The notes under the pieces: model-generated
Database searches by the model: none
What the model was told of the DNA's origin: nothing
Seen by the model: only the letters and a program-made list of their open reading frames with translations
Shown here: one piece after another, positions 33,310 through 55,934 of the stretch
Layout of the letters: every line of letters begins with the position of its first letter
Numbering within the stretch: the stretch's first letter is position 1
Made by a program: the position numbers and the translations under genes
DNA from: Burkholderiales bacterium
Lineage (GTDB): Bacteria > Pseudomonadota > Gammaproteobacteria > Burkholderiales > SG8-41
NCBI GenBank assembly: GCA_019749945.1
Contig: JAIEPF010000001.1
Location: 62,001 to 126,000, forward strand
Direction of reading: 5' to 3'
DNA: 64,000 bases

Positions 33310-34284
33310 ATGCATTTCACCCGTTATCTGATGCCGCTGATCGCCGCATCCCTGAGCCTGGGCGCCGCGCCGGCCGCCTTTGCCGCCGATTACCCCAGCC
33401 GTCCGATCCGCCTGATCGTGCCCAACGCCGCCGGCAGTTCAGTCGATACATTGGGGCGGATTTTCGCCAATGCACTGACCGGCGTCGCCAAACAGCAGGT
33501 CGTCGTGGACAACCGCGCCGGCGCCGGCGGCCTGATCGGCATGGAAATCGGCAAGGATGCCCTGCCCGACGGCTACACGCTGGTTTCGGCATCGACCGCC
33601 GCCATGGTCATCGGCCCGCATATCCACAAAAAACTGCCCTTCGATCCGCTGAAGGACTACGAATTCATCTCGCTGTTCGGCAACACGCCGAACATCCTGG
33701 TGGTCAATCCCTCGCTCCCGGTCAAGTCGGTCCGGGAACTGATTGAATACAACAAGAGCCGCGGCGGCAAAGCCAACATGGCATCAGCCGGCGTCGGTTC
33801 GCAAAGCCACCTCGCGGGCGTCTTGTTCATGCAGATGGCCAAATCCGAAGCCCTGCATGTGCCGTACAAGGGCGGCGGTGCATCGGTCGCGGCCGTGGTT
33901 GCCGGTGAATCGCAATGGACCATCACTCCGGCGCCTGCGGTGGCCGGCCTGATCAAGGGCGGCAAACTGCGCGCGGTCGCGCACAGCCTGCCCTCCAAGA
34001 CCGTGCTGCTCGGTGACCTGCCGGCGATCGCCGAAACCGTGCCCGGGTTCCAGTACGGCGGCTGGAACGGCCTGCTGGCCCCGGCCAAGACACCGAAGCC
34101 GATCCTCGCCAAGGTTCGCGAGATGCTGGTCAAAGCCACCCAGAACGCCGAGTTCAAGGCCGGGTTTGAGCGGCAGATGACGGAAGTCACCACCAGCACG
34201 CCGGAAGAATTCCGCAAGTTTGTGGCCGAAGAAATCAAGGCCATGGGTCCGGTGGTAAAAGCCGCCGGCCTGACGGCCATGTGA
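33310..34284 (+). CDS. Bug/TctC-type substrate-binding protein
   Basis: A 324-residue periplasmic receptor with a cleavable signal peptide (LIAASLSLGAAPAAFAADYP). The mature N-terminus YPSRPIRLIVPNAAGSSVDTLGR and the motif DNRAGAGGLIGMEIGKDALPDGYTL define the Bug family. It is closely similar to the gene at 35104 (both have VPNxAGSSVDTL, AGAGGxIGMEIGK and YKGGGASVAA), so the two are recent paralogues with matching promoters. AGAGGA precedes the ATG. No TctAB genes are near. Confidence 0.92.
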   Translation: MHFTRYLMPLIAASLSLGAAPAAFAADYPSRPIRLIVPNAAGSSVDTLGRIFANALTGVAKQQVVVDNRAGAGGLIGMEIGKDALPDGYTLVSASTAAMVIGPHIHKKLPFDPLKDYEFISLFGNTPNILVVNPSLPVKSVRELIEYNKSRGGKANMASAGVGSQSHLAGVLFMQMAKSEALHVPYKGGGASVAAVVAGESQWTITPAPAVAGLIKGGKLRAVAHSLPSKTVLLGDLPAIAETVPGFQYGGWNGLLAPAKTPKPILAKVREMLVKATQNAEFKAGFERQMTEVTTSTPEEFRKFVAEEIKAMGPVVKAAGLTAM

Positions 34285-34309
34285 TCCGGTTTCGGGCAAC
34301 AGGCATCAC

Positions 34310-34332
34310 GGGCGGCTGCGGCCGCCCTTTTT
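34310..34332 (+). terminator. Rho-independent terminator
   Basis: GGGCGGC (34310-34316), loop TGCG, GCCGCCC (34321-34327) and a run of five T. It follows the 33310 Bug gene and touches the stop codon of the convergent CMD gene. Confidence 0.85.
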
Positions 34333-34907
34333 CACACCTTGTTTTTTTGTGCGGCGACTGCGGCCATCGCCGCCGCGAGTTCGCCCTGCTGCGCCGAGAG
34401 CGTCTTCAGCCAGCGCTGCCCGCCGAAGGTGAAACCAATCCAGTAACCCAACTCCACCAGTTCGGGCTCGGTAAATTCCCCGCGCAGCGCCGCCCACATC
34501 GCGTCATCCGCCTGATTCGGGTCATACATGATCGCGTCGGCGTAACGCAGCGCTATTTTCTCGCGCTGCGAGAATCTGCCGGACTTTTCGTACTGCATCA
34601 GTTCCGCCATCTTGCTGTCGGCCTCCCGCGCGGACCGCGCGGTTCCCTGGTTGCTTCAGTAGCCGCATTCAATGGTGAATGCGACGTAGGCGCGCAGCAT
34701 TTCCTTCAGGTCGTGCTCAAGCAAGCCGGCGCCGTTGTCGAACAGCAGTTCGCGCGTCTGCGTGAACGAGCGCATCACGTCCGGCTGGTGCGCGCGGATC
34801 GCCTGGTTTTCCGGCCCGGGACGCCCGGCGGCAATGGCGTCGTCAAGCCAGCGCCTGATCTGGGGGTCGGCAATCGCGTCGGGTGTCACATAACTGAGTC
34901 GGGCCAT
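34332..34907 (-). CDS. Carboxymuconolactone decarboxylase / AhpD-like protein with in-frame TGA (probable selenoprotein)
   Basis: Read through the TGA at 34656-34658 this is one 191-residue CMD/AhpD-fold protein. The N-terminal half starts MARLSYVTPDAIADPQIRRW at 34907 (AAAGGA 8 nt upstream) and runs to AYVAFTIECGY. The same frame continues after TGA as SNQGTARSAREADSKMAELM, then FSQREKIALRYADAIMYDP and EPELVELGYWIGFTFGGQRW. AhpD-type proteins have a CxxC redox pair here, so the motif is Cys81-Gly-Tyr-TGA84, read as CxxU. A strong SECIS-like hairpin follows. The likely role is thiol/selenol-dependent peroxide or quinone reduction. A Cys-to-stop mutation is the alternative. Confidence 0.85.
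34626..34658 (-). promoter_or_regulatory. SECIS-like element following the TGA of the CMD/AhpD-like gene
   Basis: After UGA come 13 nt, then a perfect 6-bp stem CCGCGC/GCGCGG (34642-34637 and 34631-34626) with a five-base loop GGUCC. In the E. coli fdhF SECIS the loop is AGGUCU and its critical G and U lie 20 and 21 nt after UGA; here they lie at 21 and 22. This close match in sequence and spacing is good evidence for SelB binding. Confidence 0.75.
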
Positions 34908-34988
34908 CTCGATATCCTTTGGTATCAACCGGAGGCACATAGTGTCTGGCACGATGCGCACTCCCGCAAGCAACATCAAGCCGGTCGC

Positions 34989-35042
34989 CCCGACCAAATT
35001 GGTCGGGCAATGGTTGCCATACCCGGTCAAACCCGACAGAAT
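34989..35042 (+). promoter_or_regulatory. Operator dyad and promoter of the 35104 Bug gene
   Basis: Dyad CCCGACC-AAATT-GGTCGGG (34989-35007), then -35 TTGCCA (35014-35019), 17 nt, and -10 CAGAAT (35037-35042). It parallels the promoter at 33148-33202. The dyad also lies upstream of the divergent CMD gene and could affect both. Confidence 0.6.
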
Positions 35043-35103
35043 TCTTGCCAAAGGCTGATGTGGTTCAAAAGACCTTAAAACCTAACAACACAGGAGGAGC
35101 CTC

Positions 35104-36078
35104 ATGAAGGTCAAACTTGTTGTTTCCGCGTTGCTGGTCGCAAGCGGATTTTTCCCGACAATCAGCGCTCTCGCCGCTGAAAACTATCCGAGCCGGCCAA
35201 TCCGCGTGCTGGTGCCCAACGGCGCCGGCAGTTCCGTGGACACCCTGACGCGCATCGTCACCACCGGCATGAGCGAGGTCATCCGGCAGCAACTGGTGAT
35301 CGACAACCGCGCCGGCGCCGGCGGCGTCATTGGCATGGAAATCGGCAAGGGCGCCAACCCCGACGGTTACACGCTGATTGCCGCGACCACCGCGGCATCG
35401 ACCATCGCGAGACTGCTCGTCAAAAATCCGACCTACCATCCGGTGAACGACTACGACATGGTCGGACAGTTCGGCGTGACCCTCAACGTGCTGGTGGTCG
35501 CCAACGCCCTGCCGGTCAAATCCGTGCCGGAACTGATCGCCTACGCCAAGAGCGGCAAACAACCGTTCAACATGGCCTCGGCCGGCGTCGGCTCGCAAAG
35601 CCACCTGTCGGGCGCTTACTTCATGCTGGAAGCCAAGTTCGATTCACTGCACGTGCCGTACAAGGGCGGCGGCGCCTCGGTGGCGGCGCTGGTCGCGGGC
35701 GAATCGCAATGGTCGCTGACACCATCAGCCGCCGCGATGACCCATGTCAATGCCAAACGCATGCGCGCGATCGGACACAGCCTGATCAAACCGACCGCCC
35801 TGCTGCCCGGCATCCCGCCCATATCCGAAACCATACCGGGCTTCGACTATACCGGCTGGATGGGCTTCATGGTGCCCAAGGGCACGCCCAAACCCATCAT
35901 CGAGAAGCTGCGCGTAGCCATGGTGGAAACCATGAAAATGCCGGATGTCGTCAAGGGCATGAATTTCCAGGGCACCGAAATCATCATTCTGGGACCCGCG
36001 GAATTCCGCAAGGAAGTGCAGGAATCGATGGTCAAAAATGCGAAGCTGATAAAAACCGTCGGACTGCAGGCGAATTGA
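35104..36078 (+). CDS. Bug/TctC-type substrate-binding protein
   Basis: A 324-residue periplasmic receptor with signal peptide (LVVSALLVASGFFPTISALA). Family motifs: YPSRPIRVLVPNGAGSSVDT, DNRAGAGGVIGMEIGKGANP, ASAGVGSQSHLSGAYF and VPYKGGGASVAALVAGESQW. It is a paralogue of the gene at 33310. CACAGGAGGAGC gives a strong RBS. It has its own terminator, so it is probably a single-gene unit; the acyl-CoA dehydrogenase gene follows beyond the terminator. Ligand unknown. Confidence 0.92.
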   Translation: MKVKLVVSALLVASGFFPTISALAAENYPSRPIRVLVPNGAGSSVDTLTRIVTTGMSEVIRQQLVIDNRAGAGGVIGMEIGKGANPDGYTLIAATTAASTIARLLVKNPTYHPVNDYDMVGQFGVTLNVLVVANALPVKSVPELIAYAKSGKQPFNMASAGVGSQSHLSGAYFMLEAKFDSLHVPYKGGGASVAALVAGESQWSLTPSAAAMTHVNAKRMRAIGHSLIKPTALLPGIPPISETIPGFDYTGWMGFMVPKGTPKPIIEKLRVAMVETMKMPDVVKGMNFQGTEIIILGPAEFRKEVQESMVKNAKLIKTVGLQAN

Positions 36079-45865: not shown

Positions 45866-46951
45866 TTGAAACCCGGCAAGAAACTCGGCATCGCCGTCAT
45901 CGGCGCCGGCCGCATCGGCACGCTGCGCGCGCGCCTGTCCGCCAAACACCCGTCCGTCGGTTTTCTCGCGATATCCGATCTGGATCCGGCGCGTGCCGCG
46001 GCACTGGCCAAAACCACCGGCGCCGATGTGCATTCGGCCAGCAACTTTGAAATGATCGAACACCCGGAAGTGACCGCGGTGTTCGTCTCCACACCCGAGG
46101 GCGAACATGCCGCGCCGATCAAACGCGCGCTCGAGCTCGGCAAACCGGTGCTGGTGGAAAAACCGATCGCGCTGTCGCTCAACGACGCCGAGGACATCCT
46201 CGCCACGCTGAAGGCCACCGGGGGCGAACTGCGCGTCGGCTACAGCCGCCGCTATAAAGACTGTTACCTGCGCGCCAAGGAACAGATGATCCAGGGGCGA
46301 CTCGGCCGGGTCACCGGCGGCCTCGCCCGGGTCTACAACTCGCGCGCCCAGGCCTTCTCCATCCTGAAGCGCGATCCGCATGCAACACCGGTGCTGGACG
46401 TGCTGACCTATTACGTCGACCTGATGTGCTGGTTCCTCGAAGGCAACCCGCCGGTGGAAGTCGTCGCCCGCGGCCAGCACGGCATTTTCCGCGACGCCGG
46501 TTACGGTGCGCATGACGTGACCTGGGCCATCGTCACCTTCGCCGACGGCGCGGTGGTCAACTTCGGCGTCAGCTACGCGCTGCCGGCCAAATACCCGACG
46601 CTGGGCCAGTCCGATCGCGTCGAACTGCTGGGCACCGAAGGCACCATGCTGATCGACGATGACCACATGGACCATGTGCTGTATTCCGACCGCGGCATCC
46701 CGCATGCCTATGTGCCGGATCACGCGGTCAACATGGCCTTCCTCGGCAGCAACACCGCCGGCGACTGGGCGGTGGGGGACTTCTGGGGGCCGCTGGGCAA
46801 TGAAACCCGCGCCTGGCTCGACCATCTGGCGACCGGCAGCCCGACCGTGCACACCACACCGGAACAGGCGATGGTCAATCTGCAGACCACCATCGCCATC
46901 GAACGCTCGGCGCGCGACGGCCAACCGGTGCGCCTGCCGCTGGAAACCTGA
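45866..46951 (+). CDS. Gfo/Idh/MocA family oxidoreductase (inositol-dehydrogenase-like)
   Basis: A 361-residue oxidoreductase, the second of its family in this operon. Rossmann motif LGIAVIGAGRIGTLRARL and catalytic lysine in KPVLVEKPIALSLNDAED; then LRVGYSRRYKDCYLRAKEQM and a C-terminal DNLQT-like LQTTIAIERSARDGQPV, common in inositol 2-dehydrogenase relatives. The start is TTG with AGGAGG 7 nt upstream. It ends 19 nt before a Bug receptor gene, which would import the substrate. Confidence 0.9.
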   Translation: MKPGKKLGIAVIGAGRIGTLRARLSAKHPSVGFLAISDLDPARAAALAKTTGADVHSASNFEMIEHPEVTAVFVSTPEGEHAAPIKRALELGKPVLVEKPIALSLNDAEDILATLKATGGELRVGYSRRYKDCYLRAKEQMIQGRLGRVTGGLARVYNSRAQAFSILKRDPHATPVLDVLTYYVDLMCWFLEGNPPVEVVARGQHGIFRDAGYGAHDVTWAIVTFADGAVVNFGVSYALPAKYPTLGQSDRVELLGTEGTMLIDDDHMDHVLYSDRGIPHAYVPDHAVNMAFLGSNTAGDWAVGDFWGPLGNETRAWLDHLATGSPTVHTTPEQAMVNLQTTIAIERSARDGQPVRLPLET

Positions 46952-46970
46952 AAAAGGCTGGAGGAGAACC

Positions 46971-47936
46971 ATGTTTCGAACCGTAATCGCGATCTGCGCC
47001 ATCGCCCTTGCCGCCAGCGCTGCCGCACAGGATTATCCCAACCGCCCGATGCGCATGATCTCGCCCAATCCGCCCGGCGGCGCCAATGACACCATCGGCC
47101 GCATCATCGCCCTCAAGCTCGGCGAAGGGCTGGGCCAGCCGATGGTGATCGACAACCGCGGCGGCGCCGGCGGCACACTGGGCGCCGAGATCGCCGCGCA
47201 GGCCAATCCCGACGGCTACACGCTGCTCGCCGGCTCGGTCTCGACGCATTCGTTTTCACCGGCGCTGAAAGCCAAATTGAATTACGACCCGGTGAAGGAT
47301 TTCACGCCGATTTCGCTGTTCGCGATTTCACAAAATCTGCTGGTGACCAACCCCGCGCTGAAGGTTGCCAGCGTCAGGGAACTGGTGGCACTGGCCAAGG
47401 CCAAACCACGCTCGCTGAACTATGCTTCGGGCGGCACCGGCTCGACCAGCCATTACGCGATCGCGCTGTTCGTGTATCGCGCCGGCATCGACAAGGACAC
47501 GGTACACATCCCGTACAAGGGCGGCGCACCGTCGGTCGCAGCCACCATGTCCGGGGAAACGCAGTTTTATTTCGGCCCGATGGCGAGCATGACCTCGCAG
47601 GTGCAGGCGGGAAAACTGAAAGCGATTGCGGTCGGCGGCATCAAGCGCTCGCCCACGCTGCCCGACGTGCCGACCGTTGCCGAGTCAGGCATCCCGGCCT
47701 ATCAGTCCTTCGGCTGGTTCGGCCTGCTGGCGCCGGCAAAAACGCCGAAGCCCATCATCGCCAAGCTGCATACGGCCACAGTGCGCGCCGTCAGCGCACC
47801 CGACATCGCCCAGAAATTCCTGCAGCTGGGCGTCGACCCGGTGCACAACACGCCGGAAGAATTCGGCCGCTTCATTGCCGATCAGCTGGTACGCTACAAG
47901 AGCGCGGTCAGGGAACTGGGCATTCAGAGTGAATGA
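46971..47936 (+). CDS. Bug/TctC-type substrate-binding protein
   Basis: A 321-residue periplasmic receptor. Signal peptide FRTVIAICAIALAASAAAQDYP, then YPNRPMRMISPNPPGGANDTIG and DNRGGAGGTLGAEIAAQANPDGYT. GGAGGAG precedes ATG 46971; the open frame further upstream is a shadow of the Gfo/Idh gene. It closes the GntR-linked operon and probably binds the compound that operon degrades. It is less like the 33310/35104 pair and more like typical Bug proteins. Confidence 0.92.
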   Translation: MFRTVIAICAIALAASAAAQDYPNRPMRMISPNPPGGANDTIGRIIALKLGEGLGQPMVIDNRGGAGGTLGAEIAAQANPDGYTLLAGSVSTHSFSPALKAKLNYDPVKDFTPISLFAISQNLLVTNPALKVASVRELVALAKAKPRSLNYASGGTGSTSHYAIALFVYRAGIDKDTVHIPYKGGAPSVAATMSGETQFYFGPMASMTSQVQAGKLKAIAVGGIKRSPTLPDVPTVAESGIPAYQSFGWFGLLAPAKTPKPIIAKLHTATVRAVSAPDIAQKFLQLGVDPVHNTPEEFGRFIADQLVRYKSAVRELGIQSE

Positions 47937-54593: not shown

Positions 54594-55934
54594 TCAAGGA
54601 ATTCGCTCGAACTGCGCCAGCCAGCGCGCAGCGTGCAGCAGGCGGACATCACCCATGCGCGGCCCCACCAGTTGCACGCCCAGCGGCAAACCGTTGGCAC
54701 CGCGCAGCAGCGGCACATTGATCGCCGGCATGCCGCAAAAGGTCCACAGCGTACAGAAAGCCGGATCGCCGGTCGACCCCAACCCGCACGGCGCCGTGCC
54801 CAGGGTCGACGGCGTCAGTATCGCATCGTAATCGGCAAATATTCCGGCCAGCGCCGCGGTCACCACCGGCATCCGTGCCAATGCCTGCTGATACGCCGCA
54901 GGTGCGGTGGCGCGACCACGCTCGATCTGCGCGCGCAGCGACGGCGACAGCTGGTCGTGCCCGCGCGCCCATTCGGCTGCATAGTTGGCGGCGATGTTGG
55001 CTTCCATCACGGTGCGATGACTGTCCCAGGCCGTCGACGCCGGATCGGGCAAAACCACTTCTTCAGCGCAGCCGGCAAGGCCTGACACCAGACCCTCGAC
55101 CGCGGCCTGCGCATCCGGGTCCATGCGCCCCCAGGGCGGCGTCCGGATGAAAGCAAAACGCGGCGGCGATGCCTGCGCTGCGGCATCCGGCAACGACCAC
55201 GGTGCTGCGGAAAGGGCATCGGGATCACCGGGATCGGCGCCGATCAGCTGCCCGGCAAGCAGTGCGGCATCCTCAACGGTTTGCGCAAACACTCCGATCT
55301 GGTCCAGCGCACGCGATTGTTTGAGCACGCCGCTGCGCGGGATCAGGCCATAACTCGGCTTGAAACCGTAAACGCCGCAATAAGACGCCGGCCGGATCAC
55401 CGAACCGTTGGTCTGGGTGCCCAGCGCCAGCGGCACCATGCCTGCCGCAACCGCTGCGGCTGAACCGCTGGATGAGCCACCGGGGGTGTGCGCGGGGTCG
55501 TGCGGATTGCGGGTTTTTCCCGGCGCATAGGTGGCGAGTTCAGTGGTGACCGTCTTGCCCACAATGATCGCACCCGCATTGCGCAGGCGCCCGACGATGA
55601 CCGCATCCGCGGCAGGCCGTCGTCCGGCATGCAGCACCGTGCCGTGTTCAGTGGGCATGTCGGCGGTGTCGATGATGTCCTTGATGCCGACCGGAATGCC
55701 GTGCAGCGCACCCAGCGGCAGTCCCGCGGCGCGACGGCGGTCAGCGCCACGCGCCTGCGCCAGCACCAGCCCCGGATCGAGAAAAGCCCACGCCTGCACT
55801 TCCGGTTCGCGGGCGGCGATGCGGGCAAGGCAACTCTGCGCCACGGCCTCCGCCGTAAAAGCGCCGGCGCGCAAACCCTGCGCGAGCGCGGTCGCGGACA
55901 GCGCGTGCAGCGGCTCGCGCGAGGGGTCAGTCAT
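54594..55934 (-). CDS. Amidase signature family enzyme
   Basis: A 446-residue amidase. The Ser-cisSer-Lys triad is visible: Lys in LHGIPVGIKDIIDTADMPT, then HTPGGSSSGSAAAVAAGMVP with the cis-Ser, and the nucleophile in LGTQTNGSVIRPASYCGVYG. The length is that of allophanate- or GatA-like amidases, but no gatB/C is present. GGSSSGSAA confirms the family. It lies between the TRAP permease and hydroxyacid dehydrogenase genes, so it may deamidate an imported amide to the acid that the rest of the operon uses (inference). Confidence 0.9.
   Translation of the reverse strand: MTDPSREPLHALSATALAQGLRAGAFTAEAVAQSCLARIAAREPEVQAWAFLDPGLVLAQARGADRRRAAGLPLGALHGIPVGIKDIIDTADMPTEHGTVLHAGRRPAADAVIVGRLRNAGAIIVGKTVTTELATYAPGKTRNPHDPAHTPGGSSSGSAAAVAAGMVPLALGTQTNGSVIRPASYCGVYGFKPSYGLIPRSGVLKQSRALDQIGVFAQTVEDAALLAGQLIGADPGDPDALSAAPWSLPDAAAQASPPRFAFIRTPPWGRMDPDAQAAVEGLVSGLAGCAEEVVLPDPASTAWDSHRTVMEANIAANYAAEWARGHDQLSPSLRAQIERGRATAPAAYQQALARMPVVTAALAGIFADYDAILTPSTLGTAPCGLGSTGDPAFCTLWTFCGMPAINVPLLRGANGLPLGVQLVGPRMGDVRLLHAARWLAQFERIP

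What the first reader, a model, noticed from the sequence alone, without database searches (positions are those of the whole stretch)
34332..34907. CMD/AhpD-like gene with in-frame TGA at the second position of CxxC and a strong SECIS-like hairpin
Two adjacent frames are halves of one protein split only by TGA (34656-34658), and the codon falls exactly on the redox cysteine: C-G-Y-TGA. The frame continues with full family homology. Thirteen nt after UGA there is a perfect 6-bp stem with loop GGUCC; the E. coli fdhF SECIS has AGGUCU with its key G and U at nearly the same distance. AhpD-like selenoproteins are known from bacterial selenoproteome surveys (from memory). I infer a CxxU peroxidase-type selenoprotein. 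Automatic annotation would probably split it or call it a pseudogene.
Basis: partly seen in the sequence, partly recalled or inferred. Interest (0 to 1): 0.92.

Follow-up and report, generated by a model that had tools for sequence, protein, structure and literature searches.

The report
Selenocysteine redox enzyme, widely misannotated
This bacterial gene carries a stop codon (TGA) inside its reading frame that is kept in all the close relatives found and is likely translated as the selenium amino acid selenocysteine, giving a predicted redox enzyme that the protein database searched holds mainly as an 83-residue fragment.

Summary
Confirmed. The gene lies on the minus strand (ATG 34907, stop 34332). 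Its codon 84, TGA at 34658-34656, takes the place of the second Cys of CxxC (E-C-G-Y-U). The frame downstream is as constrained as upstream (median dN/dS 0.109 vs 0.088). Of 52 genome-contig loci, 50 are readable at the site and all 50 have TGA. The 120 listed full-length homologues, at most 63% identical, all have Cys there. The hairpin 13 nt after UGA covaries (17 two-sided changes, 0 of 500 shuffles) and pairs at this register in 43 of 55 genes against 69 of 7950 control codons. The genome has selA, selB, selC and selD, and selD has its own TGA. The predicted fold is AhpD/CMD-like, but the relay histidine is Gly88 and activity is untested. CMD/AhpD-like CxxU selenoproteins are published families, so this is a new member of a known kind, far below the cut-offs of the NCBIfam models it matches. 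A search with residues 1-83 matched 419 proteins; 115 of the 120 listed are exactly 83 aa.

The parts
34332..34907 (-). CMD/AhpD-superfamily selenoprotein gene, 191 residues with predicted Sec at 84; ATG at 34907-34905, terminal TGA 34334-34332
   Evidence: the 19 close orthologues start at the same Met and run through the TGA
34656..34658 (-). in-frame TGA, codon 84, predicted selenocysteine (second position of CxxC)
   Evidence: Cys at this place in all 120 listed full-length homologues
34665..34667 (-). codon of Cys81, predicted partner cysteine of CxxU
   Evidence: invariant in 93 of 93 aligned sequences
34626..34642 (-). SECIS-like hairpin: 5' arm 34642-34637, loop GGUCC 34636-34632, 3' arm 34631-34626
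   Evidence: covariation; position control; synonymous suppression in codons 85-95
34701..34703 (-). codon of Glu69, predicted relay glutamate (12 residues before Cys81)
   Evidence: 93 of 93 aligned sequences; spacing as Glu36-Cys48 of PA0269 in PMC3141380
34915..34920 (-). Shine-Dalgarno-like AAAGGA ahead of ATG
   Evidence: read directly from the sequence; not tested

Best explanation
The gene at 34907-34332 (minus strand) encodes a CMD/AhpD-superfamily protein whose conserved in-frame TGA codon 84 is likely translated as selenocysteine by the SelA/SelB/SelC/SelD machinery encoded in the same genome, guided by a predicted SECIS hairpin 13 nucleotides downstream. The product would carry a C-G-Y-U redox pair in the two-helix AhpD core. 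The most likely chemistry: the Sec84 selenolate attacks an oxidised or electrophilic small molecule, most plausibly an organic hydroperoxide, and is released as a selenenyl-sulfide with Cys81. A thioredoxin-like donor would then reduce that bond. Shown: the frame, the TGA and its conservation, the covarying hairpin, the Sec machinery genes, and Cys in homologues. Predicted: the fold (AlphaFold2). Inferred: Sec insertion itself, the substrate, and the reductant.
Confidence: 0.93

Rival explanations
1. It is a selenoprotein of the AhpD fold but not a peroxidase: it would act as a thiol/selenol reductase on other electrophiles, for example reductive dehalogenation as in the related debrominase Bmp8, or as an electron-relay adaptor.
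Confidence: 0.35
2. UGA is read as another residue (Cys or Trp) or by plain readthrough, not as selenocysteine.
For: Nothing here reads the residue directly; Cys is what the homologues carry.
Against: Full selA/selB/selC/selD set and a covarying hairpin at the bacterial SECIS place. None of the 120 listed full-length homologues has Trp at the site.
Confidence: 0.04
3. It is a pseudogene or a sequencing error that created a premature stop.
For: Two adjacent half-ORFs, as a nonsense mutation would leave.
Against: The same TGA in 50 of 50 readable genome-contig loci, from several phyla by record title, and intact codon selection downstream.
Confidence: 0.01
4. The open plus-strand frame 34281-35078 (265 aa) is the real gene and the minus-strand match is its shadow.
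For: The frame is open over the whole region, and the same antisense frame is open over the gene in some relatives too (L017, L020, L021 and L030).
Against: In other relatives the antisense frame is broken by stops (L018, L022, L026, L027, L031, L032 and L033), whereas the minus frame shows dN/dS near 0.1 and family homology.
Confidence: 0.01

Closest known systems
AhpD-like selenoproteins (COG2128/TIGR01926) and CMD-domain selenoproteins (PF02627) of the Sargasso Sea and GOS surveys (PMC1088965, PMC2398784; listed in the reviews PMC9312934 and PMC13188914; passages read)
   Same: CxxU in an AhpD/CMD-type protein, UGA followed by a bacterial SECIS-like hairpin, Cys homologues widespread
   Different: This protein scores only 34.2 bits on TIGR01926 (cut-off 81.8).
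NCBIfam NF053654 GroundWater_YciW, 'YciW-related (seleno)protein'
   Same: Same superfamily, aligned over residues 1-160, also a selenoprotein-aware model by its name
   Different: 54.8 bits against a cut-off of 310; none of 10 further relatives, Sec and Cys, reached the cut-off either (best 87.9)
AhpD-like PA0269 of Pseudomonas aeruginosa (2o4d/2ijc) and peroxidase-related 2prr, 6k40, 2oyo
   Different: Predicted Sec in place of the second Cys; Gly in place of the relay His (PMC3141380 passages)
Debrominase Bmp8 (6ohi, 6ohj)
   Same: Best sequence-profile match among solved structures; same fold
   Different: Named a debrominase; its identity here is 16% over 155 residues. Only titles were seen; its mechanism was not read.

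Membership tests
Bacterial selenoprotein | in-frame UGA at a position where homologues have Cys, with coding continuing downstream | tested here: met
Bacterial selenoprotein | SECIS-type hairpin directly downstream of UGA with a small G-containing apical loop | tested here: met
   published feature read in passages of PMC1088965. SelB binding was not tested.
Bacterial selenoprotein | selA, selB, selC and selD in the same genome | tested here: met
Bacterial selenoprotein | selenium in the purified protein | not testable with these tools
   needs 75Se labelling or mass spectrometry
CMD family PF02627 | match over the Pfam gathering score | tested here: met
   25.7 bits against 23, a narrow pass
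AhpD (alkylhydroperoxidase D) | five-residue proton relay Glu, Cys, His/Tyr, Cys, His | tested here: not met
   Glu69, Cys81, Tyr83 and Sec84 align; position 88 is Gly, not His. It is Gly in 83 and His in 1 of the 93 aligned sequences, 72 of which are Cys forms.
AhpD (alkylhydroperoxidase D) | AhpD-like all-helical fold | tested here: met
AhpD (alkylhydroperoxidase D) | peroxidase or AhpC-adaptor activity | not testable with these tools
   biochemistry needed
NF053654 GroundWater_YciW | curated cut-off of 310 bits | tested here: not met
   54.8 bits
TIGR01926 peroxidase-related enzyme | curated cut-off of 81.8 bits | tested here: not met
   34.2 bits

The most novel reading that the evidence does not exclude
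This is an unmodelled Sec subfamily of the CMD superfamily spread through uncultured bacteria of several phyla, known to protein databases mainly as 83-residue stubs. In these Burkholderiales the selenocysteine machinery is kept mainly for a radiation of CMD selenoenzymes and SelD rather than for formate dehydrogenase. The Sec form works without the relay histidine of AhpD.
Probability: 0.45. Interest if true: 0.65.

Novelty: new member of a known kind. Interest (0 to 1): 0.52.

Why it matters
Selenoprotein genes are lost by automatic annotation. Here a whole subfamily, found in at least four phyla by record title, sits in the protein database searched as entries cut at the active site and, where named among those listed, called 'hypothetical protein'. 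A profile with U at residue 84 would recover it. The subfamily also offers natural Sec/Cys pairs at about 60% identity, which makes it possible to test what Sec adds to AhpD-fold chemistry and whether Sec can stand in for the missing relay histidine.

Tried and rejected
Pseudogene, private mutation and antisense-gene readings: rejected, see rivals. Functional linkage by gene neighbourhood: ORFs were called roughly and clustered for the 50 loci and part of the window and laid out for 21 loci. Some families recur within a lineage: a receptor-like family (Bug/TctC type, recognised by eye, no call named it) in the flanks of 23 loci and the window, and, among the ten gamma/alpha/Proteobacteria-labelled loci, clusters 12 and 13 in 6 and cluster 20 in 5. 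None recurs right beside the gene across lineages. Co-occurrence with SelB as proof: all 23 genomes (of 61) that hold a TGA gene of this subfamily (19 close, 4 only distant) are among the 41 with SelB at E<=1e-60, one of them (G036) below the family cut-off. This does not discriminate within the genus: tRNA-Sec is over the cut-off in 6 of 6 genomes checked, five of them same-genus genomes where the gene was not found, and two genomes that missed the SelB threshold (G009, G046) show partial SelB matches. Rfam scan of the window at gathering scores: no match. Direction of Sec/Cys evolution: the tree needs two state changes among 74 rows, root unknown, quick method with 31 of 71 inner branches open, so no direction is claimed. 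That tree used 29 of the 50 genome contigs Sec genes, the window gene, 4 distant Sec relatives, 35 of the 120 listed Cys proteins and 5 of 7 Cys loci. Literature on Bmp8: no paper in the library holds both search terms. deep-Sep paper: no mention of AhpD or carboxymuconolactone in the main text. For the covariation count I left out 10 of 55 sequences, L082, L083, L085 and L087-L093, because their hairpin has another register. The genome-contig scan used peptide patterns from Sec sequences only, so Cys forms with other flanking letters would be missed; 50 of 50 TGA is a statement about that catch. Own-genome selenoproteins other than SelD, CMD and FdhA were not surveyed.

Full report
Observation. 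The gene lies on the minus strand. From ATG at 34907 the frame reads 83 codons, an in-frame TGA (34658-34656), then 107 more codons to a TGA stop at 34332. The in-frame TGA falls exactly on the second position of a C-x-x-C motif: E80-C81-G82-Y83-U84. Thirteen nucleotides after it begins CCGCGC-GGUCC-GCGCGG, a perfect 6-bp hairpin.

The TGA is conserved. A read-through search of 61 genomes (own, 20 same-genus, 16 same-family, 24 same-order) found a match at E<=1e-10 in 36. Nineteen places in 19 genomes at 74% identity or more, own included, carry a TGA at codon 84 and all show C-[GA]-Y-U; one more, in G010 (85%), ends at residue 66 at a contig edge. Five more distant places (44-55% identity) also carry TGA at the homologous codon. 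A scan of GTDB genome contigs returned 52 loci. Two cannot be read at the site (L097 ends before it, L099 is a fragment); all other 50 have TGA. By record title the 50 include Betaproteobacteria, Gammaproteobacteria, Rhodospirillaceae, Deltaproteobacteria, Acidobacteria, Bacillota and an Acidimicrobiaceae MAG; titles of MAGs can be wrong. The scan's peptide patterns came from Sec sequences only, so it cannot measure how frequent Cys forms are.

Cys homologues. The protein database search gave 464 homologues; the 120 listed are at most 63% identical to the read-through protein, and 120 of 120 carry C-x-Y-C at this place. In a 93-sequence alignment the columns of Cys81 and residue 84 are Cys/Sec throughout. 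The named entries with an organism are from Acidimicrobiia or Actinomycetota.

Selection. Over 171 pairs of the 19 close genes, median dN/dS is 0.088 upstream (134 pairs used) and 0.109 downstream, codons 85-176 (154 used); pairs with a synonymous proportion outside 0.02-0.70 were dropped. The downstream half is not decaying. Synonymous differences drop to 0.22 per site in codons 85-95, the hairpin region, against 0.60 upstream and 0.62 in codons 96-176, a sign of a second constraint at the RNA level.

Hairpin. In 55 TGA genes (50 genome-contig loci, the window gene, L035-L038) the 6-bp stem is perfect in the same register in 43. At other codons of the 50 genome contigs genes the same register pairs in 69 of 7950. 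Of the 12 exceptions, ten genes labelled Gammaproteobacteria, Rhodospirillaceae or Proteobacteria have a 5-bp hairpin (loop GTG or CGTGA) at almost the same place, and L095 and L035 have shifted or imperfect ones. In the alignment without those ten (45 sequences), 99.3% of cells pair, 17 cells have changes on both sides (shuffled mean 1.4, 0 of 500 as high), and four of six pairs change on both sides. The count of further pair types is weaker (37 of 500 shuffles as high). A smaller set of 23 gave the same picture. The protein pays for some of these changes: L026 and L032 change Arg94 to Gln and Leu where the 5' partner changed. Shuffles do not keep relatedness; the slid controls, which do, reach at most 4 such cells. 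The folding energy alone is not remarkable for so GC-rich a sequence (z -0.94).

Machinery. The genome (3.59 Mb, 40 contigs, 95.8% complete) has selB (428 bits, cut-off 242), selC (tRNA-Sec 75.9 bits, gathering 47; ARAGORN tRNA-SeC) and selA (577 bits, cut-off 267.9) within about 7 kb of each other, and selD elsewhere (420 bits). selD has an in-frame TGA near its start (GGC-TGA-GGC), so it is a predicted selenoprotein itself. All 23 of the 61 genomes with a TGA gene of this subfamily have SelB at E<=1e-60, one below the family cut-off. Inside the genus this is uninformative, because five genomes in which the gene was not found have tRNA-Sec as well.

Annotation. A search with residues 1-83 alone found 419 proteins. 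Of the 120 listed, 115 are exactly 83 residues, 3 are 84, one is 93 and one is 113, and all 120 end in C-x-Y, the last three residues before the UGA. Where a source gives a name among these it is 'hypothetical protein'. In the search with the whole read-through protein no listed entry exceeded 63% identity, although DNA of orthologues at 74-90% exists.

Known or new. CxxU AhpD-like and CMD-like selenoproteins were reported in the Sargasso Sea (27 and 4 sequences) and GOS surveys and are listed in the 2022 and 2026 reviews (PMC1088965, PMC2398784, PMC9312934, PMC13188914; passages read). The kind is therefore known. This subfamily scores far below the curated cut-offs of the NCBIfam models it matches (NF053654 54.8/310, TIGR01926 34.2/81.8), and so do the 10 relatives tested. 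I could not check whether the published survey sequences include it.

A family of such genes. The same genome has a second CMD gene with in-frame TGA (H-G-C-R-Y-U, L104), of which L112 and L113 look like kin in two same-genus genomes. Relatives have a third type (A-S-C-x-Y-U-G-N-V-R-S-A-S-A-K-R) with its own hairpin, and in one genome a U-P-Y-C gene that looks peroxiredoxin-like by eye lies beside it (L110, L111, L114-L118). None of the 13 stretches of the own genome that match the FdhA model has a stop inside. This is the basis of the bolder reading in the section on the most novel reading; a full selenoproteome was not surveyed.

Noticed in passing
L104 (G000:C36, near 54668-54916); kin in L112, L113: Second CMD-family gene of the same genome with an in-frame TGA at the second position of CxxC (HGCRY-U-MAHSAG) and a hairpin downstream.
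   Followed up: partly
L110, L111, L114-L118: Third CMD selenoprotein type in family- and order-level relatives, ASCxY-U-GNVRSASAKR, with the hairpin CCGCTTC-GGC-GAAGCGG; the search hit a second related stretch within 1 kb in these genomes.
   Followed up: partly
L117: Peroxiredoxin-like selenoprotein candidate by eye (GHW-U-PYC) next to the third-type CMD selenoprotein gene in genome G038.
   Followed up: no
L046 1501-1560: selD of the own genome carries an in-frame TGA near its N terminus, a predicted Sec-containing SelD.
   Followed up: partly
L014 8164-9069: Thioredoxin-reductase-like gene (TIGR01292 232 bits, below its cut-off of 343) directly downstream of selB; a possible electron donor pathway.
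   Followed up: no
window 33310-34284, 35104-36078, 46659-47936: Three paralogous genes that look like Bug/TctC-type periplasmic receptors (by eye); two of them flank the selenoprotein gene on both sides, on the opposite strand.
   Followed up: no
L085: One relative has an additional TAA about 12 codons after the TGA, in a short contig; a broken copy or an assembly error.
   Followed up: no
L051, L052, L061, L072, L075, L077, L098: Record titles Bordetella parapertussis and (L075) Chitinophaga pinensis on MAG contigs whose gene groups with uncultured Burkholderiales; probable mislabelling.
   Followed up: partly
L106 (G000:C34:82752-84803): Best formate dehydrogenase alpha match of the genome has no stop inside, so FdhA seems to be a non-Sec form here.
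   Followed up: partly
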